Positions 5,155 to 58,754 of a stretch of DNA of 64,000 nt are shown in pieces (positions within the stretch are counted from its first letter, which is position 1; each line of letters starts with the position of its first letter). Origin of the DNA: Caulobacter vibrioides (GTDB taxonomy: Bacteria; Pseudomonadota; Alphaproteobacteria; Caulobacterales; Caulobacteraceae). The notes beneath the pieces are model-generated. The model did not search any database, was not told where the DNA came from, and saw nothing but the letters and a program-made list of their open reading frames with translations. The stretch spans positions 1,178,001 through 1,242,000 of the forward strand of contig NZ_CP023315.3 of the NCBI RefSeq assembly GCF_002310375.3, given 5' to 3'. The position numbers and the translations under genes were made by a program.

Positions 5155-7638
5155 TTGGACAACGGTTCGGGTGCGATTGCCGGAGTGACCGCGCCGCTGG
5201 CGCGGCGGCTGCTGACGATGGTGGCGATCCTGTCGATCGCTGTGACCAGCGTCGCGACCGCAGCAGCCTTCATCTTCGTGCGCGAGAGCGCGGCCGACAC
5301 CCAGACGCGGCATCTGGCTGAATATGTCGGGGAGCGGGTCAAGACCGAGGATCGGTTGTTCTCTGATCTGGTCAGGGTGCACGACGCGGCCCGCGAGTCG
5401 CTGACCCGGCGCCTTGATCATCAGCCCGCTGCGCCGATCACGGCCGAGTTTGAGCGCCTCTATCCCGAGAAGGGCGATGGCACCCGCCGTTCAGCCCCCG
5501 CGCTTTATGATGGCGTGCGGGTCGATGGCCATTACGTTCATGGCCTGGGCGGCTATCTGCGCGACGCGAAGGCCATGAGCCGGGCCGAACAGGCGCTGTT
5601 CGTCGCGGCCGCCGACGTGGTGGCGGGCGCGGGCGAGGCGCAGATCCGCCACTACGACAACTTCTACTTCTTCACGCCGCAGACGCGTCTGGTGATGTTT
5701 GGCCCGCTACGCGAGGACAGGCTTGAGTACTATCGGCGTGACGCGCCCAATACGCTGGACATCTCCAAGGAGGAGATGACGACCTTGACCCTGCCGGAGA
5801 ACAATCCAGAGCGGGTCATGAAATGCACCAAGCTGCGGCGCCTGATCTCCGATCCCAGCGGTCGGGGGCTCAACGCGGCCTGCATGACGCCCTTCTACTA
5901 CAAGGGCCAGTTCATGGGCGCGTTCGGCACAAGCCTGTCGCTCGACTCCTATCTTCTGCGCGCCGTCGCCGACGCCCTGCCTGGCGGGTCGAACATGATC
6001 GTCGCTGATGACGGCGAGTTGGTGGCCGCGCAGGGGCTCTCGCGGAACGGCTTCGTCGACGCGGACCTGCTGCGACGGTTCGAGGTCGACAATGATCTCA
6101 AAGCCCTGATGAGCCGAATCCGCGCGGGCAAGCGTGACGTCGGCGCGGTGCTGTCGCCCGACGGCGACCGGTTGGTGGCCTATGGCCGCCTGGTGGAGCC
6201 CGGTTGGTGGTTCCTGATGAGCTTCCCATCCAGCGACCTTGTCTGGTCGTCGCTCAAGACCGCCTCGTGGGTTCTGCTGTTCGGCTTCTTCGGCGTGCTG
6301 CTGCAGGTGCTGCTGCTGCATCGCTTGACCAACCAGATGGTCGCCGCGCCGCTGCAGGCGCTGGCAGACGCCCAGCAGCAGGGCGATCCGGCCGCCGCGC
6401 GTCCGTTCGAGGCGCGACCCGACGAGATCGGCTCCCTAGCGCGGGCGCTGCGCCGACAACGCGAACGTTACGAGGACCTGTTCCGCTCCTTGGAGCAGCG
6501 CGTGGCCGTGCGCACCGCCGAGTTGGAGCGGGCCAACCAGGCCAAGTCGGTATTCCTGGCCAACATGTCCCACGAACTGCGCACGCCGCTGAACGGCGTC
6601 ATCGCCATCGGCGACCGTCTGGCCGAGGAGGAAGACGCCGGGACCCGCCGCGAGCTGGCCTCGCTGGTGACCTCGTCCGGCCGATTGCTGGAGCAGGTGC
6701 TGGGCGACATCCTGGATGTCTCCAAGATCGAAGCGGGCCAATTCCAGCTGAGTCCGGTGCCGTTCGACCTGGTCCAGCTGGTGCGCGGCATGGCCGAGCT
6801 GCACGCGGCCGCGGCGGAGGCCAAGCAGCTGACGTTCCGCTGGTCGGTCTCGCCGGACGCCGAAGGGTCCTATGATGGCGATGCGGGGCGGATCAGCCAG
6901 ATCCTCTCCAACCTGCTGGCCAATGCGGTCAAGTTCACGGCGACGGGCGAGGTCTCCCTGGACGTCGACCGTCAGGGCGAGGCGCTGCGCTTCGTCGTCC
7001 GCGATACGGGCGTCGGGTTCGACGACGCCGTGCGCGACCGCCTGTTCAAGCGCTTCGTCCAGGCCGACCAGTCGATCACGCGCCAGTTCGGCGGCACGGG
7101 CCTTGGCCTCTCGATCTGCGCGGCCCTCGCCGAGATGATGCAAGGGTCGATCACGGCCGAAGCGACACTGGGGCAGGGCGCCTGCTTCGAAGTCGTCCTG
7201 CCGCTGCCGCGCTGCGCCGAAGTCACCGATGTGGCGGTCGAGGAAGATCGCGAGATCTCGCTGGAAGGCATGCGGGTGCTGGTGGCCGAGGACCATCCGA
7301 CCAACCGCAAGGTGGTCGAGATCGTCCTCCAGCCCTTCGGCGTGGACCTGACCATGGTCGAGGACGGTCAGGCCGCGCTGGACGCGCTGGAGCAGGGGCG
7401 CTTCGACGCGGTCCTGATGGACATGCAGATGCCGGTGCTGGACGGCCTGTCGGCCACCCGCGCGATCCGGGCGCGGGAGAAGGCCGCCGGCGCCTCGCCG
7501 ATCCTGGTGATCATGCTGACCGCCAACGCCATGGAGGAGCATGTGGCCTCGGCGCGTGCGGCGGGGGCCGATCTGCATCTGGCCAAGCCGCTGCATCCGG
7601 CCCAGCTGCTCGAGGCCCTGGCGCGGGTGCGGCGCTAG
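5155..7638 (+). CDS. Membrane-bound hybrid sensor histidine kinase with C-terminal receiver
   Basis: A protein of 827 residues when read from TTG 5155, which has a GGGAG ribosome site; an upstream TTG at 5104 is also in frame but has none. Order: transmembrane helix 1 (about 15-38), a roughly 310-residue periplasmic sensor region, then transmembrane helix 2 (about 360-382). HAMP-like linker and coiled coil lead to HisKA with H-box NMSHELRTPLNG (His473). HATPase_c carries NLLANAVKFT and GGTGLGLS. A REC domain with phospho-acceptor Asp756 in VLMDMQMPVLDGL ends the protein. The periplasmic part is not recognised, so the signal is unknown. The architecture implies a phosphorelay needing an external Hpt protein. 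It is divergent from icd. Confidence 0.93.
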   Translation: MDNGSGAIAGVTAPLARRLLTMVAILSIAVTSVATAAAFIFVRESAADTQTRHLAEYVGERVKTEDRLFSDLVRVHDAARESLTRRLDHQPAAPITAEFERLYPEKGDGTRRSAPALYDGVRVDGHYVHGLGGYLRDAKAMSRAEQALFVAAADVVAGAGEAQIRHYDNFYFFTPQTRLVMFGPLREDRLEYYRRDAPNTLDISKEEMTTLTLPENNPERVMKCTKLRRLISDPSGRGLNAACMTPFYYKGQFMGAFGTSLSLDSYLLRAVADALPGGSNMIVADDGELVAAQGLSRNGFVDADLLRRFEVDNDLKALMSRIRAGKRDVGAVLSPDGDRLVAYGRLVEPGWWFLMSFPSSDLVWSSLKTASWVLLFGFFGVLLQVLLLHRLTNQMVAAPLQALADAQQQGDPAAARPFEARPDEIGSLARALRRQRERYEDLFRSLEQRVAVRTAELERANQAKSVFLANMSHELRTPLNGVIAIGDRLAEEEDAGTRRELASLVTSSGRLLEQVLGDILDVSKIEAGQFQLSPVPFDLVQLVRGMAELHAAAAEAKQLTFRWSVSPDAEGSYDGDAGRISQILSNLLANAVKFTATGEVSLDVDRQGEALRFVVRDTGVGFDDAVRDRLFKRFVQADQSITRQFGGTGLGLSICAALAEMMQGSITAEATLGQGACFEVVLPLPRCAEVTDVAVEEDREISLEGMRVLVAEDHPTNRKVVEIVLQPFGVDLTMVEDGQAALDALEQGRFDAVLMDMQMPVLDGLSATRAIRAREKAAGASPILVIMLTANAMEEHVASARAAGADLHLAKPLHPAQLLEALARVRR

Positions 7639-52300: not shown

Positions 52301-52975
52301 GCGGCGGCGCTGTATGTCTTCCGCACCCTGGTGGACGACGAGATCCCCATGAACGACGGCTGCTTGCGGCCGGTCGAGCTGGTGATCCCCGAAGGCTCGA
52401 TGCTTCGGCCGCGCTATCCGGCGGCGGTGGTGGCGGGCAATGTCGAGACCAGTCAGGTCGTGGTCGACGCCCTCTACGGCGCCCTGGGCGTCATGGCGGC
52501 GGCGCAGGGGACGATGAACAACTTCACCTTCGGCGATGATCGTCGGCAGTACTACGAGACTATCTGCGGCGGTTCCGGCGCAGGGCCGGACTTTGCGGGG
52601 ACCGACGCGGTGCAGACGCACATGACCAACAGTCGCCTGACCGATCCCGAGGTGCTGGAAGCGCGCTATCCGGTGCTGGTCGAGGCGTTCTCGATCCGGC
52701 GCGGCTCAGGCGGAGCCGGCGCCAACCGGGGCGGTGACGGCGTCGTGCGCAAGATCGGCTTCCGCGAGCCGATGACCGCGACCCTGTTGTCCAACCGCCG
52801 CCGCGTCGCGCCGTTTGGCCTCGAAGGTGGCGATTGCGGCGCCGTGGGATCGGCGCGGGTCGAGCGCGCCGATGGTCAGGTGCAAGCCTTGGGCGCGACC
52901 GACCTCGTCGAGGTGTCTGCGGGCGACGCGATCGTTATCGAAACGCCCGGCGGCGGCGGGTGGGGGAGACACTAA
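49382..52975 (+). CDS. Fused hydantoinase/5-oxoprolinase (HyuA-HyuB)
   Basis: A 1197-residue protein joining the HyuA-like ATPase half (about 10-680) and the HyuB-like half (about 690-1195). Hyu[48 protein letters not shown] and [13 protein letters not shown]. Hyu[58 protein letters not shown] and TPGGGGWG at the end. The fusion and length fit ATP-dependent 5-oxoprolinase (5-oxo-L-proline to glutamate), though acetone carboxylase- or hydantoinase-like roles exist in the superfamily. The stop overlaps the next start (TAATG). Confidence 0.93.
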
Positions 52976-53451
52976 TGGCCAAGGCTGCAGTTCTGTTCGT
53001 CTGCATGGGCAACATCTGTCGCTCACCTCTGGCCGAGGGTGCGTTTCGCGCCGAGGCGGAGCGGCTTGGCCTGGACATCCTGGCGGACAGCGCCGGCACC
53101 GGCGGCTGGCACGCCGGTGCGTCACCGGACGCGCGCGCCGTCGCGGTGGCGGGACGAAACGGCGTCGACATCAGCGGCCAGCGTGCGCGCCAGGTGCAAG
53201 CCGAGGACTTCCGGACGTTCACCCACATTTACGCGCTGGACCAAGACAACCTGCGCGGCCTTCTGAATGTCGCGCCGGCCGATGCGACCGCCGAAGTGGG
53301 CTTGTTGCTGGACCTGGTGGAAGGTCACGCGGGACGCGGGGTCATCGACCCCTACTACGGCAACGACGCCGGGTTCGAGGTCGTTTGGACCGATGTCGTC
53401 ATGGCCGCGCGGGTGCTGGCTCAGCGTCTGGCCGACGAAGGCCGGACCTGA
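52975..53451 (+). CDS. Low-molecular-weight protein-tyrosine phosphatase
   Basis: A 158-residue LMW-PTP. The P-loop VCMGNICRSPLAEG has catalytic Cys10 and Arg16 (C-x5-R-S). The general acid is the Asp in VIDPYYGNDAGFE (about residue 122). ADSAGTGGWHAGASPDARA and ISGQRARQVQAEDF are typical. It can act on tyrosine or arginine phosphates. It overlaps the 5-oxoprolinase stop by one base and is translationally coupled to it. Its partner kinase is not in the window. Confidence 0.95.
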   Translation: MAKAAVLFVCMGNICRSPLAEGAFRAEAERLGLDILADSAGTGGWHAGASPDARAVAVAGRNGVDISGQRARQVQAEDFRTFTHIYALDQDNLRGLLNVAPADATAEVGLLLDLVEGHAGRGVIDPYYGNDAGFEVVWTDVVMAARVLAQRLADEGRT

Positions 53452-53464
53452 GGAGGCTCCCGCA

Positions 53465-54115
53465 TCAGCCGCCGAAGCTACCCTTGGACCGGCTGCTGCT
53501 GGCGTAGCTGCGTCCGCCGCCGAAGCCGCCGCGCGAGACCACCGAGGTGCGGGTCTGCACCTTGGGCGGCGCGTTGCGGATCACATCCGGCGGGTCGATG
53601 CTGGTCTTGCTGATGACCGTCTTGCCGGTGCCGTAGTCACGCCCGAGCTTTCCGCCCCAGGTGGAGTAGTAGCCGCCGCCATAGCGATCGTCCCGGCGAT
53701 ACATGCCTGTGCCGCGATAGTAGCCGCCGCCGCCGTCCAGCATCTGGCCGATCACGAAACCGGCCAACAGGGGACCGAAGAAGCTCTGTCCGTCCTGGCC
53801 GCGGGGGACGCAGTTTCCGGGGCCGTAGACCTCTTCGCAGGTGGCGCGCGCCTCATAGCGCGGCGCCTTCTCGGCGTCGTCCTTCTGGGCGGCGGCCCAA
53901 GAGGTGTCGCACTGCTCGTCGGAGACCTCGTTGGCCACCTTGCACTCGGCGAGGCTCTTGTAGCTGAACGCCTCGACCTGTTCGCCCCGGTTGGGGTCCC
54001 AGCTGGCCTGGGGCGAGGGATCGTCGCAGCCGGCCAAAGTCAGCGAGGCCGCGCCGACGAGCATGGTGCTGAGTTGCAGCGAGCTGGAGCGCTTGCGAGG
54101 AGCGGTCATGGCCAT
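53465..54115 (-). CDS. DUF1190 lipoprotein (YjfM/YgiB-like)
   Basis: A 216-residue exported protein with lipobox LAGC (Cys about 30). The DUF1190 domain (about 35-150) shows VEAFSYKSLAECKVANEVSDEQCDTSWAAAQKDDAEKAPRYEARATCEEVYGPGNC, with four cysteines likely in disulfides. A Gly/Tyr/Arg-rich low-complexity stretch (about 120-150) and a Ser/Gly-rich tail follow. It is homologous to E. coli YjfM/YgiB. It is the last gene of the minus-strand half of the yjf-like system, four bases after the DUF350 gene. Its job is unknown. Confidence 0.9.
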   Translation of the reverse strand: MAMTAPRKRSSSLQLSTMLVGAASLTLAGCDDPSPQASWDPNRGEQVEAFSYKSLAECKVANEVSDEQCDTSWAAAQKDDAEKAPRYEARATCEEVYGPGNCVPRGQDGQSFFGPLLAGFVIGQMLDGGGGYYRGTGMYRRDDRYGGGYYSTWGGKLGRDYGTGKTVISKTSIDPPDVIRNAPPKVQTRTSVVSRGGFGGGRSYASSSRSKGSFGG

Positions 54116-54119
54116 GTCC

Positions 54120-54533
54120 TCAGGCGGTCATGCAGGCGGCGTTGAGCAGGCCGACCGCGATGGAGATGCCCGCCAGATAGACGCCGATCGAGACCTCGCC
54201 GCTTTCGATGCGGGTCTTGACGTCGGGCAGGGCCACGATGCGAACGCCGGTGAAGGCGGCGATCTGGATCACGCCGGCCAGCGTCGCCCAGGCGGCGAAC
54301 TCAGGCAGGCTGACCGTATGGCTGAGCGCCGAGGCCAGGGGCAGGACATAGCCGACCAGCGCGCCCGCCAGCGCAATGGCCGCTGCGGTGTTGCCCTGCC
54401 GGATCAAGGCGCGCTCGTTGTACGGCGTCACCCACTGGTAGATGTACTTGAAGGCGATCGTGAACAGGCCGGCCAAGGCGAAGGCCAGCAGGAAAGCGAT
54501 CGCCCCTTCCTTGAAACCGATGAAGTCGAACAT
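54120..54533 (-). CDS. DUF350 membrane protein (YjfL-like)
   Basis: A 137-residue inner membrane protein with four transmembrane helices, the DUF350 type found as single or paired modules. It has GAIAFLLAFALAGLFTIAFKYIYQWVTPYNERALIRQGNTAAAIALAGALVGYVLPLASAL and a second half with IESGEVSIGVYLAGISIAVGLLNAACM. The ATG at 54533 starts the family homology. It is the middle gene of the DUF2491-DUF350-DUF1190 operon, matching YjfK-YjfL-YjfM order in E. coli. Confidence 0.92.
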   Translation of the reverse strand: MFDFIGFKEGAIAFLLAFALAGLFTIAFKYIYQWVTPYNERALIRQGNTAAAIALAGALVGYVLPLASALSHTVSLPEFAAWATLAGVIQIAAFTGVRIVALPDVKTRIESGEVSIGVYLAGISIAVGLLNAACMTA

Positions 54534-54601
54534 CTGGCTGGCTCTCCCCAAGAACCCGCCCGATCGGCGCTGGCCGAGCGGGTATGCGGGCTCGTCAAAA
54601 T

Positions 54602-55249
54602 TCAGGCTCGGAACTCGCCCACCGACAGCGGCAGGCCGATCATGGTCTCGTGACTGACGTCTTTACGATCTTCAGGCTCGAGGGTCAGGGCGAGCAAGAG
54701 CTCGCGACCATCGCCGCCCAGAAGGTCGCGGTGGAACAGCATCACGGTCTGGAACAGGCGGCGGTCGGGCGTCTGGGCGTCGCGCGCATAGTAGACGTCT
54801 TCCCACAGGGTCACCGGATCCTGTTGCTCGGCCTCATCGCCGAACCAAAGGCGCGTGTAGGGCGGCAGGCCTTCGGGCTGGAAGGTGCGAGACCGCAGGC
54901 GCTGGTTCCACAGTTCGTGATCGGTGCGATCGGCGGGATACTCGCTGGCCCAGGGCGTAAAGACGGTGAAGTCGTTGGCCTTCTGCCCCTCGCGATCGTC
55001 GGAGACGACCTGAAACAGGATCTCGTCGTCGGTGTAGAAGCGATGGACGAAAGCGCCGTCGTTCAGCTGGATCAGGCCTTGCGCGGTGATCTCCAGCGTA
55101 TCGCGGTCGAGGGCGAACTTGGTCTCCTCGCCCAGCCGGCGCCAGGCCAGCGGGTCAAGCACCACGGTCCGGCCGATCGTCACGTTACGGATGATGGGCA
55201 GGGCGGGGCCGGAGGGCTGGTCTTTGCGGCCGAAGAGTTTTCCGAACAT
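54602..55249 (-). CDS. DUF2491 protein (YjfK-like)
   Basis: A 215-residue cytoplasmic protein of the DUF2491 family. The N-terminus is MFGKLFGRKDQPSGPALPIIRNVTIGRTVVLDPLAWRRLG. The middle has TLEITAQGLIQLNDGAFVHRFYTDDEILFQVV and the end LWEDVYYARDAQTPDRRLFQTVMLFHRDL. It corresponds to YjfK of E. coli. ATG 55249 is used; a longer frame reaches 55375 but would cross the operator region. First gene of the minus-strand operon. No enzymatic motif is known. Confidence 0.9.
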   Translation of the reverse strand: MFGKLFGRKDQPSGPALPIIRNVTIGRTVVLDPLAWRRLGEETKFALDRDTLEITAQGLIQLNDGAFVHRFYTDDEILFQVVSDDREGQKANDFTVFTPWASEYPADRTDHELWNQRLRSRTFQPEGLPPYTRLWFGDEAEQQDPVTLWEDVYYARDAQTPDRRLFQTVMLFHRDLLGGDGRELLLALTLEPEDRKDVSHETMIGLPLSVGEFRA

Positions 55250-55368
55250 CGCGATCAGCGAGGCCTCGAATCCTGGGCCGGCTCGCTTATCTGGTGGGCG
55301 AAGCCGGTTTCCCGAAAGCGTGCTTGCTCTCGGGTGAAGTCGGTCGCAGGATGACGCTATACGATGGG

Positions 55369-55403
55369 TTGTCAAGCATACATGTTATGCGTACATGTAA
55401 CGC
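55369..55403 (+). promoter_or_regulatory. Tandem operators and promoter of the yjf-like system
   Basis: Two 15-bp near-palindromes, GCATACATGTTATGC (55376-55390) and GCGTACATGTAACGC (55389-55403), repeat every 13 bases and end directly at the ATG of the DUF2170 gene. TTGTCA (55369-55374), 17 bases and TACATG could be a promoter with +1 on the ATG. The site lies in the divergent spacer and could control both operons. Confidence 0.65.
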
Positions 55404-56075
55404 ATGCCTGCTAGACTGAAGAGAAGCGCTCAGGCCGCTGAAAGAACGCGGGCGTGGCGCGAAGCGCGACGGAACGCCGGCTTCGTGAAAATCGAGGTCT
55501 GGGCGCCGGCGGCGTGCAAGCCCGACATTCTTTCGGCTGTGCAGGCCATCGTCGTCGAGTCGGTCCGCGGACCGGCGCTGCAGACCAATCCCCATCCCCC
55601 CAAGGGCGTCAAACATATGGACTCCGTTATCGACACCGCCTGGACGATCCACACCCTGCGCGACGCGCTGGTGGAAAGCGCGCTCGTGCGCGAGGACGAA
55701 ATGACCGTTACGGTCGTCGAGGGCGTCGAGCCCGTGCTGATGGTGGTTATGCACGAGTTCGGCGACCTGCCGATCTATGTCAGCGGCGGGGGGCTGCAAC
55801 TAGTCGTCTCGACCCTGCTGTGGGCCTGCGATGAGCAGAACAATCGCTCGGAATTCAATGAGTTCCTGCTCAAAGCTCAGAAGATCGTGCCGCTGTCGAA
55901 CTTCGGCATCACCACGGTCGACGGCCGCGACTACTACGAGCTGTTGGGCGAGATCTCGTCCAAGACCACCCTGCAGACGCTGATCATCGAGCTGCGAACC
56001 CTGGCCGACAACGCCATCGCCGCCGCCAGCGACCTGCGTGATTCCTTCGAAAAAAGCCGCGTCGCGGCCGCCTAA
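55404..56075 (+). CDS. DUF2170 protein with MazE-like N-terminal extension (YjfI-like)
   Basis: A 223-residue protein. Residues about 72-215 form the DUF2170 domain: VIDTAWTIHTLRDALVESALVREDEMTVTVVEG, VMHEFGDLPIYVSGGGLQLVV, NEFLLKAQKIVPLSNFGITTV and YYELLGEISSKTTLQTLIIELRTLADNAI, matching E. coli YjfI. Residues 1-40 are an extra module, AERTRAWREARRNAGFVKIEVWAPAACKPDI. It resembles MazE-like antitoxin N-termini (R-x-x-R-x-AG-x-x-x-V-WVP). An internal ATG at 55617 would give the bare domain. The long form is preferred because the proposed promoter ends at ATG 55404. It is the first gene of the plus-strand operon. Confidence 0.85.
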   Translation: MPARLKRSAQAAERTRAWREARRNAGFVKIEVWAPAACKPDILSAVQAIVVESVRGPALQTNPHPPKGVKHMDSVIDTAWTIHTLRDALVESALVREDEMTVTVVEGVEPVLMVVMHEFGDLPIYVSGGGLQLVVSTLLWACDEQNNRSEFNEFLLKAQKIVPLSNFGITTVDGRDYYELLGEISSKTTLQTLIIELRTLADNAIAAASDLRDSFEKSRVAAA

Positions 56076-56098
56076 CGACAGAGACCGGAGAACTTCGA

Positions 56099-56857
56099 AT
56101 GTCTATCTGGAGCAAGCTCTCGGCCCTGTTCCGTGGCGCGGCGCATGAAGGCGCGCAGACGGTTGTGGACGCCAACGCCCTGCGCATCCTGGATCAGGAG
56201 ATCCGCGACGCCGACACCGCCCAGGGCAAGGCCCGGGACGAGCTGGCCAAGCTGGTCGCGCGCCGCCGCGCGCTGGAGACCGAGGTCGCCCAGCTGACCG
56301 ACCAGTCGCGCAAGTACGAATCCTCGGCGCGCGCGGCGATGAACAAGGGCGACCAAGCCCTGGCCCTGGAAGTGGCGCAGCGTATCGCCGACCTCGAAAA
56401 GGACGCGGGCCAGAAGTCGACTCAGATGACTGAGCTGCGCGCGGCTGAGGAAAAGCTGCGCACGGTGATCGCCCAGACTGACACCAAGGTCGAGGCGCTG
56501 CGCCGCGAGATCGAGATCGTGAAGGTCAACGAAAGCGTCCAGAAGGCTCAGGCGGCCGTCATCTCGCGCTCGGGTTCGGCCAGCGGTGTGGTCGGCTCGG
56601 CCGCCGATAGCCTCAAGCGCATCAAGGAACGTCAGGCGGTTCGCGAGGAGCAGTTCCGGCTGCACAGCGAGTCGGAGGACCGCAAGACCGGCGCTGATCT
56701 GGACGCCAAGCTGGCGGCGGCGGGCATCCTGCCGGGCGCGAGCGGCGCCGAGGACGTGCTGGCGCGCCTGATGGCCCCGAAGAACGAGGCCCTGCCGGCC
56801 CCGATGCTGGCCATCGAGGACAGGCAAAAGGTTGCTCGGGACGGCTCGGACGCCTGA
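56099..56857 (+). CDS. PspA/IM30 family protein (YjfJ-like)
   Basis: A 252-residue coiled-coil protein of the PspA/IM30 (ESCRT-III-like) family, which coats and repairs inner membrane. The N-terminal amphipathic start is SIWSKLSALFRGAAHEGAQTVVDANALRILDQEIRDADTAQGKARDELAKLVARRRALE. Heptad-rich helices then run to about residue 165. The tail (about 165-252) is polar, with AAAGILPGASGAEDVLARLM. It corresponds to YjfJ. Its stop overlaps the next start (TGATG), so the ATP-grasp enzyme is translationally coupled. Confidence 0.92.
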   Translation: MSIWSKLSALFRGAAHEGAQTVVDANALRILDQEIRDADTAQGKARDELAKLVARRRALETEVAQLTDQSRKYESSARAAMNKGDQALALEVAQRIADLEKDAGQKSTQMTELRAAEEKLRTVIAQTDTKVEALRREIEIVKVNESVQKAQAAVISRSGSASGVVGSAADSLKRIKERQAVREEQFRLHSESEDRKTGADLDAKLAAAGILPGASGAEDVLARLMAPKNEALPAPMLAIEDRQKVARDGSDA

Positions 56858-58020
56858 TGCGTCGTCTGACCCTGAAGCCTCGGCCGGACTGGAAGTCTAA
56901 GGCCGAGGCCGTCGGTTTCACCTGGCATCACGCCGATGGCCGCCGCTACTGGGACGAGCGAGCGGCCTACGCCTTCACGCTGGAGGAGGTCGAGGGTCAT
57001 CTGGAACCCGCGACCGAGGCGCTGCACAAGCTCTGCCTGGAGCTCGTGGACGACGCCGTCAAAAGCGACGCCCTGATGGCGCGGCTTCAGATCCCTGAAG
57101 CGACGCGAGACCTGGTCGCCGCCTCGTGGAAGGCGCGTGATCCGTCGCTCTATGGGCGGTTCGACTTTTTCTTCGACGGGGCCGGCCCGCCCAAGCTCTA
57201 CGAGTACAACGCCGACACCCCGACCAGCATCTATGAAGCGGGCGTGTTTCAGTGGCTGTGGCTGGAGGACCTGATCCAGCAAGGGGCGCTGCCGGAGTCG
57301 ACGGACCAGTTCAACAGCCTGCACGACCAGTTGGCCGAGCGGTTCAAGGCGATCTTCCCGAACGGCGGCTTTGTCCACTTCGCCAGCGATCCTGACTTTG
57401 TCGAGGACCGTCAGACGGTGCGCTTCCTGGAAGACATGGGCCGCCTGGCGGGTCTGGAGCCCAAGTTCGTGCCGACCACGGCGATCGGTCTCGACGCTGA
57501 CGGCCGTTTCGTCGACCAGGACAACTACATCATCGGCGCGCTGTTCAAGCTGTACCCCTGGGAGGACATGCTCCGCGAGCCCTACGCGGCCAGCATAGCG
57601 GGGTCCAAGACCCTGTTCCTCGAGCCGCCCTGGAAGGCGGTTCTGTCGAACAAGGCGATGCTCCCCCTGTTGTGGGAGCGGCACCCGGGGCATCCCAACC
57701 TGCTGGAGACCTATTTCGACGACGATCCCAAGGTCGAGCGTCTGGGGGCCAGCTACGCGCGCAAGCCGCTGTTCAGCCGCGAGGGCGCGAACATCGAGCT
57801 CTGGAAGGACGGCCGCAAGGGCAGGGTGCTCGACCAGGGCTATGGCGCTGAAGGCTGGATCCGTCAGGAGCTGAAGCCGCCGCCCCGGTTCGGCGCGAAC
57901 TATCCGGTGATCGGGTCGTGGGTCGTTGGCGATCAGCCCGCCGGCATCGGAGTCCGCGAGGATCGTGGCCAGGTGACGCGCGACCGCTCGCGGTTCATTC
58001 CGCACATCATCGAAGGCTAA
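56857..58020 (+). CDS. Glutathionylspermidine-synthase-like ATP-grasp ligase (YjfC-like)
   Basis: A 387-residue enzyme of the GSP_synth family (C-N ligase, ATP-grasp), corresponding to E. coli YjfC. It shows FTWHHADGRRYWDERAAYAFTLEEVE at the N-terminus and YGRFDFFFDGAGPPKLYEYNADTPTSIYEAGVFQW as the substrate region. EPPWKAVLSNKAMLPLLWERHPGHPNLLET and KPLFSREGANI lie in the nucleotide-binding half. GSWVVGDQPAGIGVRED is near the end. True glutathionylspermidine synthases have extra domains; this short form probably joins different partners, perhaps a peptide and a polyamine or amino acid. It overlaps PspA. Confidence 0.93.
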   Translation: MRRLTLKPRPDWKSKAEAVGFTWHHADGRRYWDERAAYAFTLEEVEGHLEPATEALHKLCLELVDDAVKSDALMARLQIPEATRDLVAASWKARDPSLYGRFDFFFDGAGPPKLYEYNADTPTSIYEAGVFQWLWLEDLIQQGALPESTDQFNSLHDQLAERFKAIFPNGGFVHFASDPDFVEDRQTVRFLEDMGRLAGLEPKFVPTTAIGLDADGRFVDQDNYIIGALFKLYPWEDMLREPYAASIAGSKTLFLEPPWKAVLSNKAMLPLLWERHPGHPNLLETYFDDDPKVERLGASYARKPLFSREGANIELWKDGRKGRVLDQGYGAEGWIRQELKPPPRFGANYPVIGSWVVGDQPAGIGVREDRGQVTRDRSRFIPHIIEG

Positions 58021-58754
58021 AGCGCGCGCAGGATGCGAACGGCGTCCGCGACGGCCGCCTGATCGGTGTCGCGCAGCTCGGGCGGCACGAAACCCATCGC
58101 GCCCAGCTTCGAGCTCGGCTCGGCGCCGGGGATCGGGCCACTGAAGGATCCGTGGACTTCGCGCACGCCGGTGCGGCGGACCAGCTCGGCGACATTGCCA
58201 GGTTTGACTCCGGCGCCGGCCAGGATGCCGATGCGTCCCGCGGCCTGCTCGACAAGGGCCGCGATCTGCTCTGCGCCGGCCTGGGCGGTCAGGGCGCCGC
58301 CGGACGTCAGGACCCGCTCGAACCCCAGCTGGACAGCGATCTCGAGCGCCTCGGCCTGATCGGGCACGAGGTCGAACGATCGGTGCAGGCTCATGCCCAT
58401 GCCTTGGGCGTGCGCCACAAGGGCTTCCAGGACGGGAAGGTCCAGCGCGCCGTCCGGGCGGTTGGCGCCGATCACCACGCCCGCCAGGCCATGGGCGCGC
58501 ACCGCATCGATGTCGCGCTTGATGGCGTCCACGTCGCCCTCGTCGTAGCAGAAGTCGCCGTTGCGCGGCCGGATCATCGGATAGATCGGGATCGGCGCTG
58601 ACGCAGCCTGGGCCATCAGGCCCGGCGCAGGGGTCAGGCCTTGCAGGGCCAGGGCCGCGCAAAGTTCGATCCGATCAGCGCCGCCGGCGATCGCCGCCGC
58701 CAGTCCAGCGGGCGTATCGACACAGACTTCCAGAAGAATGCGTTCAGGGCTCAT
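58017..58754 (-). CDS. cutC: Copper homeostasis protein CutC
   Basis: A 245-residue TIM-barrel CutC. ILLEVCVDTPAGLAAAIAGGADRIELCAALALQGLTPAPGLM is the family signature, and VHGSFSGPIPGAEPSSKLG is near the end. The sequence contains HRSFDLV, DLPVLEALVAHAQGMG and GRIGILAGAGVKPGNV. It has been linked to copper tolerance but its activity is not established. Its 3' end overlaps the ATP-grasp gene by four bases in a convergent way. Confidence 0.93.
   Translation of the reverse strand: MSPERILLEVCVDTPAGLAAAIAGGADRIELCAALALQGLTPAPGLMAQAASAPIPIYPMIRPRNGDFCYDEGDVDAIKRDIDAVRAHGLAGVVIGANRPDGALDLPVLEALVAHAQGMGMSLHRSFDLVPDQAEALEIAVQLGFERVLTSGGALTAQAGAEQIAALVEQAAGRIGILAGAGVKPGNVAELVRRTGVREVHGSFSGPIPGAEPSSKLGAMGFVPPELRDTDQAAVADAVRILRAL

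What the first reader, a model, noticed from the sequence alone, without database searches (positions are those of the whole stretch)
53465..58020. Complete yjfIJKLMC-like membrane/ATP-grasp system, split into two divergent operons
Six genes match the E. coli yjf set: DUF2170, PspA/IM30 and a glutathionylspermidine-synthase-like ATP-grasp on the plus strand; DUF2491, DUF350 and a DUF1190 lipoprotein on the minus strand. In E. coli they run as one row; here they are split around a short control region. Seen in sequence: the overlapping PspA/ATP-grasp stop-start and the four-base DUF350/DUF1190 spacing. Inferred: a cell-envelope device in which an ATP-grasp enzyme makes an amide-linked small molecule or peptide tag. 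A PspA-type coat, a four-helix membrane protein and a disulfide-rich lipoprotein would act on the membrane. Its substrate and purpose are largely undescribed.
Basis: partly seen in the sequence, partly recalled or inferred. Interest (0 to 1): 0.85.

Follow-up and report, generated by a model that had tools for sequence, protein, structure and literature searches.

The report
PspA–polyamine-ligase system with built-in repressor
This is the Caulobacter version of a known but poorly understood bacterial membrane-stress gene set; its first gene carries an extra, probably DNA-binding part beside a matching control site, and the lipoprotein that accompanies its polyamine-attaching enzyme ends in a conserved glycine-rich tail that may be that enzyme's target.

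Summary
Observation confirmed: six genes (DUF1190, DUF350, DUF2491 on minus; DUF2170, PspA, GSP-type ATP-grasp on plus) at the stated coordinates, in a Caulobacter vibrioides-like genome. The set is published (E. coli yjfIJKLMC; "third group" of CesT/Tir-PspA operons, Ravi 2024), and E. coli YjfC/YgiC are reported peptide-spermidine ligases. The split is not local: all 26 carriers among 119 Caulobacteraceae, and every uncut locus of a larger scan, share the divergent layout.

Three points go beyond what I found in the library. (1) The DUF2170 protein has an extra ~70-residue MazE-like, probably DNA-binding domain; all Caulobacteraceae forms with it, and four of five more distant ones, have CATG/ACGCGT repeats just before the start codon; forms without it lack them. 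In Pseudomonas, loss of the homologue BacA raises the operon's other proteins 6-13-fold, so I propose an operator-binding autorepressor switched by PspA. (2) The lipoprotein ends in a conserved RGGFG...GG tail; a like-tailed lipoprotein adjoins the ligase even where the DUF1190 domain is gone, making the tail a candidate substrate. (3) The genome lacks SpeD but has a DHS-like enzyme, suggesting homospermidine as the amine. All inferred, untested.

The parts
53465..54115 (-). DUF1190 lipoprotein (YjfM/YgiB type), 216 aa: lipobox LAGC, four further cysteines, conserved C-terminal tail SRGGFG...GSFGG
   Evidence: Pfam PF06693 1.7e-39; tail analysis
54120..54533 (-). DUF350 membrane protein (YjfL type), 137 aa from ATG 54533 (ORF open from TTG 54551)
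   Evidence: Pfam PF03994 7e-36; homologues start at MFD
54602..55249 (-). DUF2491 protein (YjfK type), about 215 aa; confidently predicted beta-rich tunnel-like fold
   Evidence: Pfam PF10679 1.6e-57; AlphaFold2 mean pLDDT 93; weak fold matches incl. triphosphate-tunnel enzymes, Z up to 5.3
55370..55403 (.). operator-like element containing TACATGTTATGCGTACATGTAA (55379-55400), ending 3 bases before the DUF2170 start codon; the TTGTCA beside it reads TGACAA on the minus strand (possible -35 of the DUF2491 operon, speculative)
   Evidence: single match with up to 3 mismatches in the window and in the whole genome; related repeats in 92 of 93 loci with the N-terminal domain, 0 of 11 without; GTCAA in 84 of 88
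55404..55616 (+). N-terminal domain of the DUF2170 protein (residues 1-71), MazE-like, probably DNA-binding; core R...G-VK-E-W
   Evidence: PF11455 in 5 of 14 members, best 1.6e-5, one over the cut-off; not hit for the window's own copy; purifying selection; conserved in distant homologues
55617..56075 (+). DUF2170 / YjfI domain (CesT/Tir-type chaperone fold), beginning at invariant Met72, a possible internal start codon
   Evidence: Pfam 6.2e-49; fold match to BacA 8q8o, SigE, YbjN, ExsC; Met72 invariant in alignment, Shine-Dalgarno test not significant
56099..56857 (+). PspA/IM30 family protein (YjfJ type), 252 aa
   Evidence: Pfam PF04012 3e-64
56857..58020 (+). ATP-grasp acid-amine ligase of the YgiC/YjfC family (GSP_synth domain without amidase domain), 387 aa
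   Evidence: Pfam PF03738 6.8e-145; PDB 7uk8 YgiC 6e-119, 7uk6 YjfC 1e-109

Best explanation
The locus is the Caulobacter form of the YjfIJKLMC (CesT/Tir-PspA plus ATP-grasp) envelope system, in two divergent operons. PspA coats or repairs the inner membrane. The ATP-grasp enzyme joins a polyamine (probably homospermidine here) to a peptide carboxyl group. DUF350 and the DUF1190 lipoprotein act in the membrane and periplasm; DUF2491 is a cytosolic beta-tunnel protein of unknown activity. The DUF2170 protein is most likely the switch: its N-terminal domain binds the repeat beside its own start codon and represses its operon, and perhaps the divergent one, while its chaperone-like domain binds PspA. 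When PspA moves to a damaged membrane the repressor's state changes and the genes are released. Shown: gene content, layout, co-occurrence, fold of the DUF2170 domain, domain-operator association. Supported by published data on the Pseudomonas homologue: negative effect on its operon, and contact with the PspA homologue (described by the authors as unpublished). Inferred: DNA binding, the PspA switch, the amine, the peptide.
For: Six Pfam hits. Same divergent layout in 26 of 26 carriers and in all 75 loci of a second scan with enough flank. ATP-grasp full-length match to YgiC/YjfC, with the EYNAD core shared with GspS. N-terminal domain MazE-like in relatives and under purifying selection. CATG/ACGCGT repeats within 60 nt of the start in 92 of 93 long forms, 0 of 11 short forms, including two loci of another class with 9/9 inverted repeats. 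Site single in the genome. DUF2170 model matches T3SS-chaperone folds. Transposon mutant of Pseudomonas bacA: BacB-F up 6.1-13.5-fold (PMC10948618); BacA-BacB interaction mentioned as unpublished. No SpeD, no nspC over its cut-off, DHS-like enzyme 1.3e-89.
Against: The window's own N-terminal domain has no Pfam hit over threshold, its model is low-confidence (pLDDT about 47-69), and a profile search of the PDB found nothing. The operator pattern was defined after seeing the sequences; single-locus inverted-repeat tests are often not significant (p=0.55 for the window). Long versus short forms need only one change on the alphaproteobacterial tree, so that association is not replicated there. 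One long form (L262) lacks the motif. The bacA mutant is a transposon insertion, so altered read-through is possible. E. coli YjfI has no such domain, so the switch cannot be general.
Confidence: 0.6

Rival explanations
1. Ordinary yjf/psp-type operon pair in which the DUF2170 protein is only a chaperone for PspA or other partners; the N-terminal extension is not DNA-binding, and the conserved repeat before it belongs to the promoter or to another regulator.
For: No confident fold or window-level Pfam hit for the extension; E. coli YjfI lacks it; GTCAA next to the repeat could be a promoter element; the BacA authors explain regulation by protein-protein contacts.
Against: The repeat is found with the extension in two classes of Pseudomonadota and is absent without it; relatives match a MazE-like antitoxin family; a relative with a diverged extension (L155) has a different palindrome, CTCACGCGTGAG.
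Confidence: 0.3
2. The ATP-grasp enzyme makes a free small polyamine-peptide metabolite, as glutathionylspermidine synthetase does, which protects membrane or redox state; the lipoprotein is a separate periplasmic partner and its tail is not modified.
For: Homology to GspS and trypanothione synthetase; ligase cytosolic by sequence, lipoprotein exported by its lipobox, so they sit in different compartments; glutathione is a C-terminal-Gly peptide.
Against: The GspS loop NADSASC is replaced by NADTPTS; YgiC is reported not to share Gsp activity (PMC12506659 citing Sui 2012); the lipoprotein tail follows the ligase gene across unlike lipoprotein bodies.
Confidence: 0.5
3. The DUF2170 gene yields two products, full-length repressor from the first ATG and free chaperone domain from invariant Met72 (an addition to the main explanation rather than an exclusive rival).
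For: Met72 invariant in 14 diverse long forms inside an unconserved, low-confidence linker; stronger anti-SD pairing than at the first ATG, means -5.3 vs +0.15 kcal/mol; near-perfect SD in two members of another class.
Against: Synonymous-codon shuffling not significant (p=0.70 for the window; lowest among listed loci 0.05); the Met may be a relic of the short form.
Confidence: 0.4

Closest known systems
E. coli yjfIJKLMC (b4181-b4186)
   Same: All six families; yjfC annotated peptide-spermidine ligase
   Different: One row in E. coli, two divergent operons here; E. coli YjfI is the short form without N-terminal domain
Third group of CesT/Tir-PspA operons (Ravi et al. 2024, PMC11237479)
   Same: CesT/Tir-PspA pair with ATP-grasp ligase, DUF350, DUF1190, DUF2491
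   Different: The ligand-sensing potassium channel of that group is missing here, though present in some relatives; the N-terminal MazE-like domain and operator did not appear in the passages found there by term search (full paper not read)
bac cluster and BacA of Pseudomonas aeruginosa (PMC10948618, PDB 8q8o)
   Same: DUF2170 plus similar N-terminal domain followed by a PspA homologue; NCBIfam BacA model aligns residues 11-209
   Different: Score 140 against cut-off 300, so not an equivalog; the similar loci L257 and L258 lack DUF2491/DUF350/DUF1190/ATP-grasp nearby
YgiB-YgiC pair of E. coli
   Same: DUF1190 lipoprotein next to YgiC ligase; YgiB also has TRGGFG and ends SMGG
   Different: No PspA, DUF2170, DUF2491 or DUF350 in the annotated flanks
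Glutathionylspermidine synthetase/amidase
   Same: Same ATP-grasp ligase domain
   Different: No amidase domain; glutathione-loop residues differ

Membership tests
yjf-type CesT/Tir-PspA + ATP-grasp system (Ravi group 3) | DUF2170 (CesT/Tir) gene next to a PspA-family gene | tested here: met
yjf-type CesT/Tir-PspA + ATP-grasp system (Ravi group 3) | GSP-type ATP-grasp, DUF350, DUF1190 and DUF2491 in the same neighbourhood | tested here: met
   26 of 26 relatives
yjf-type CesT/Tir-PspA + ATP-grasp system (Ravi group 3) | potassium channel with ligand-sensing domain (optional member) | tested here: not met
   no room between DUF2491 and DUF2170 in the window; present in several relatives such as L144, L259, L260, L262, L270. 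E. coli yjf also lacks it, so I treat it as optional, not defining
YgiC/YjfC peptide-polyamine ligases | full-length sequence relation, synthetase domain alone | tested here: met
YgiC/YjfC peptide-polyamine ligases | ligase activity with peptide and spermidine | not testable with these tools
   needs biochemistry
Glutathionylspermidine synthetase/amidase (GspSA) | bifunctional protein with amidase domain | tested here: not met
   387 aa; NCBIfam PRK10507 145 bits against cut-off 882
BacA equivalog (NF050185) | score over curated cut-off | tested here: not met
   140 vs 300 bits
MazE-like antitoxin domain (PF11455) | score over gathering cut-off | tested here: inconclusive
   one relative over cut-off (25.2 vs 22), 5 of 14 members at E<=0.1; window copy not hit
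Classical Psp system | PspF and PspB/PspC partners | not tested
   not searched genome-wide
Triphosphate tunnel (CYTH/TTM) enzymes, for DUF2491 | TTM fold | tested here: inconclusive
   Foldseek nothing at E<=0.001; VIA best Z 5.3 to ygiF (rmsd 3.2, 81 aligned), several further TTM rows at Z 2.9-3.8

The most novel reading that the evidence does not exclude
The YgiC/YjfC ligase family attaches a polyamine to the C-terminal tail of its companion lipoprotein. The tail carries [SA]RGG[FY]G and ends mostly in aromatic-Gly-Gly in DUF1190 proteins of this system, or in Gly-Glu or Cys-Cys-Gly in others. It stays next to the ligase gene even where the DUF1190 domain has been replaced by a mini-lipoprotein of about 100 residues. 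This would be a new bacterial protein modification, a polyaminated lipoprotein, here controlled by a PspA-linked repressor.
Probability: 0.25. Interest if true: 0.85.

Novelty: new variant of a known kind. Interest (0 to 1): 0.55.

Why it matters
The yjf/ygi genes are present in E. coli and many other bacteria, yet their in-vivo substrate and regulation are open. This locus offers two direct tests: a predicted operator with its repressor fused to a PspA partner, which would explain the published rise of the operon's proteins in a bacA mutant, and a named candidate substrate for the polyamine ligase that can be checked by mass spectrometry in E. coli K-12 or Caulobacter.

Tried and rejected
Local splitting of an E. 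coli-like row: rejected, layout shared by all Caulobacteraceae carriers. Bifunctional Gsp synthetase/amidase: rejected. Internal Shine-Dalgarno as proof of a second start: synonymous-shuffle test not significant. Single-locus palindrome statistics: mostly not significant, weight moved to conservation. Independent losses of domain and operator in alphaproteobacteria: tree needs one change only. PDB profile search with the N-terminal domain: one chance hit. DUF2491 fold: no significant Foldseek match, no sequence relative in the PDB. Spermidine made by SpeD or nspC in this genome: no SpeD, nspC only far below its cut-off. A count over 142 Alphaproteobacteria showed the set is rare there (4 with DUF2170, 4 with DUF2491). 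Papers on this system in Caulobacter: none found. PF03994 and PF04012 were not searched genome-wide, being broad families.
Full report
What is there. Pfam identifies each well above its curated cut-off: DUF1190 lipoprotein 53465-54115 minus, DUF350 54120-54533 minus (ORF open from TTG 54551), DUF2491 54602-55249 minus, DUF2170 55404-56075 plus, PspA/IM30 56099-56857 plus, GSP_synth ATP-grasp 56857-58020 plus. The TGATG overlap and the 4-base spacing are in the sequence. The genome is 4.14 Mb in one contig; the closest named records are Caulobacter vibrioides.

Is it a system? Among 119 Caulobacteraceae genomes 26 carry DUF2170 and the same 26 carry DUF2491; all 26 also carry GSP_synth (53 genomes in all) and DUF1190 (41 in all). 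Every DUF1190 genome in these lists also has GSP_synth. In all 26 the six genes sit together in the same divergent layout, as they do in all 75 loci with enough flank of an 80-locus scan. One alphaproteobacterium of another family (L144) has the same arrangement; two others (L266, L267) are divergent but keep the ligase on the DUF2491 side; loci of another class with the full set run in one row, as does E. coli K-12. A ligand-sensing potassium channel, listed by Ravi et al. for this operon group, is present in several relatives but absent here.

What is known. Ravi et al. 2024 (PMC11237479) describe this combination as a third group of CesT/Tir-PspA operons and relate it to polyamines and membrane stress. 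E. coli YjfC and YgiC are annotated as peptide-spermidine ligases, after Pederick et al. 2023, which I know only through citations in PMC10948618 and PMC12568646 and their PDB entries. The window's ATP-grasp aligns end to end with both and lacks the amidase domain of GspSA. An evolved promoter mutation raising yjfIJKL was reported in heat-adapted E. coli (PMC12492005).

The DUF2170 protein carries an extra domain. Residues 1-71 precede the DUF2170 domain. In relatives this part matches PF11455, MazE-like antitoxin (best 1.6e-5, 25.2 bits against a cut-off of 22; 5 of 14 members at E<=0.1); the window's own copy is not hit. Its core R...G-VK-E-W is kept from Caulobacter to homologues of another class, and changes among close relatives are mainly synonymous, so it is translated. 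That it binds DNA is an inference. Right before its start codon lies TACATGTTATGCGTACATGTAA (55379-55400), with no other match within 3 mismatches in the window or in the whole genome. CATG/ACGCGT repeats of this kind lie within 60 nt of the start in 92 of 93 long forms and 0 of 11 short forms; two loci of another class (L153, L154) have complete 9/9 inverted repeats with ACATGT arms. Limits: the pattern was chosen after inspection, relatives are not independent, one long form (L262) lacks it, and the alphaproteobacterial tree needs only one long/short change.

Why a switch. The model of the DUF2170 domain matches BacA (8q8o) and type III secretion chaperones and regulators such as SigE, YbjN and ExsC. 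For Pseudomonas BacA, a transposon mutant raises BacB-F by 6.1- to 13.5-fold, and the authors mention a strong, unpublished BacA-BacB interaction, BacB being the PspA homologue. They propose regulation through protein contacts; a term search of that paper found no mention of DNA-binding or ribbon-helix-helix, and the crystal covers only about 139 residues. A DNA-binding end, an operator and a PspA-binding end in one protein give a simple model. I put the operator-binding autorepressor step at about 0.6 and PspA control of it at about 0.4. GTCAA beside the operator is kept in 84 of 88 Caulobacteraceae long forms and could be part of a minus-strand -35 element, so one bound protein might cover both promoters; this is speculation. 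An internal start at invariant Met72 is possible but the Shine-Dalgarno test is not significant.

The lipoprotein tail. All 28 tail clusters of DUF1190 proteins contain an RGG[FY]G-like motif near the end; 22 end in Gly-Gly and 19 in aromatic-Gly-Gly, against 10% and 2.7% per position elsewhere in the last 30 residues. E. coli YjfM ends HWGG and YgiB SMGG. Caulobacteraceae with a ligase but no DUF1190 hit have instead, where the contig allows, a short lipoprotein next to the ligase with the same motif and a Gly-rich end, often Gly-Glu; one further group ends Cys-Cys-Gly. The tail is thus the constant companion of the ligase. Since the related GspS and trypanothione synthetase act on a C-terminal glycine (general knowledge), the tail is a candidate substrate, probability about 0.25. 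The main objection is that a lipoprotein tail should be periplasmic and the ligase cytosolic, so modification would have to precede export. The literature library showed nothing on this, but it is incomplete.

The amine and DUF2491. The genome has no AdoMet decarboxylase and no nspC over its cut-off, but a deoxyhypusine-synthase-like protein at 1.3e-89, a family known to include homospermidine synthases (general knowledge), so homospermidine may be the amine; not tested. DUF2491 is modelled confidently (pLDDT 93) with no significant Foldseek match; a second look lists several triphosphate-tunnel enzymes, best Z 5.3, which is inconclusive.

Verdict. A real, conserved and already described system in a layout typical of its family. 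New here, as far as I could check, are the fused MazE-like domain with its operator and the ligase-linked lipoprotein tail. Both are inferences from sequence and are directly testable.

Noticed in passing
L259 (G378), about 6671-7420 minus; L155 upstream region: A relative with a diverged N-terminal domain has a different palindrome, CTCACGCGTGAG, twice before its start codon, suggesting co-change of domain and site.
   Followed up: partly
L263, L264, L268, L272, L273, L276, L261: Loci with short DUF2170 (most also with a PspA-like gene) carry GACATAWTATGTC palindromes, in most just before the DUF2170 gene; small proteins resembling ribbon-helix-helix regulators are encoded nearby in L272, L273 and L276.
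   Followed up: partly
L083, L087, L088, L147, L148, L283-L288: Mini-lipoproteins of about 100 aa with the RGGFG tail replace the DUF1190 protein next to the ATP-grasp gene.
   Followed up: yes
L108/L149, L151, L152, L292-L297: DUF1190 proteins of one group end in Cys-Cys-Gly instead of Gly-Gly.
   Followed up: no
L122-L136 short forms and L256: Short-form systems of Caulobacter, another Caulobacteraceae genus and Sphingomonas montana form one clade, possibly moved between lineages.
   Followed up: partly
L142 (6033-6314): The DUF2170 gene of this genome has an in-frame TAG inside the domain.
   Followed up: no
window 54602-55249: DUF2491 has invariant R, Q, R, E and E residues (R71, Q81, R134, E151, E184 in the model's numbering) in predicted strands; weak resemblance to triphosphate-tunnel enzymes.
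   Followed up: partly
window 52975-53451 and 58017-58754: Flanking genes: low-molecular-weight phosphotyrosine phosphatase (plus) and CutC family (minus), the latter convergent with the ligase gene.
   Followed up: no
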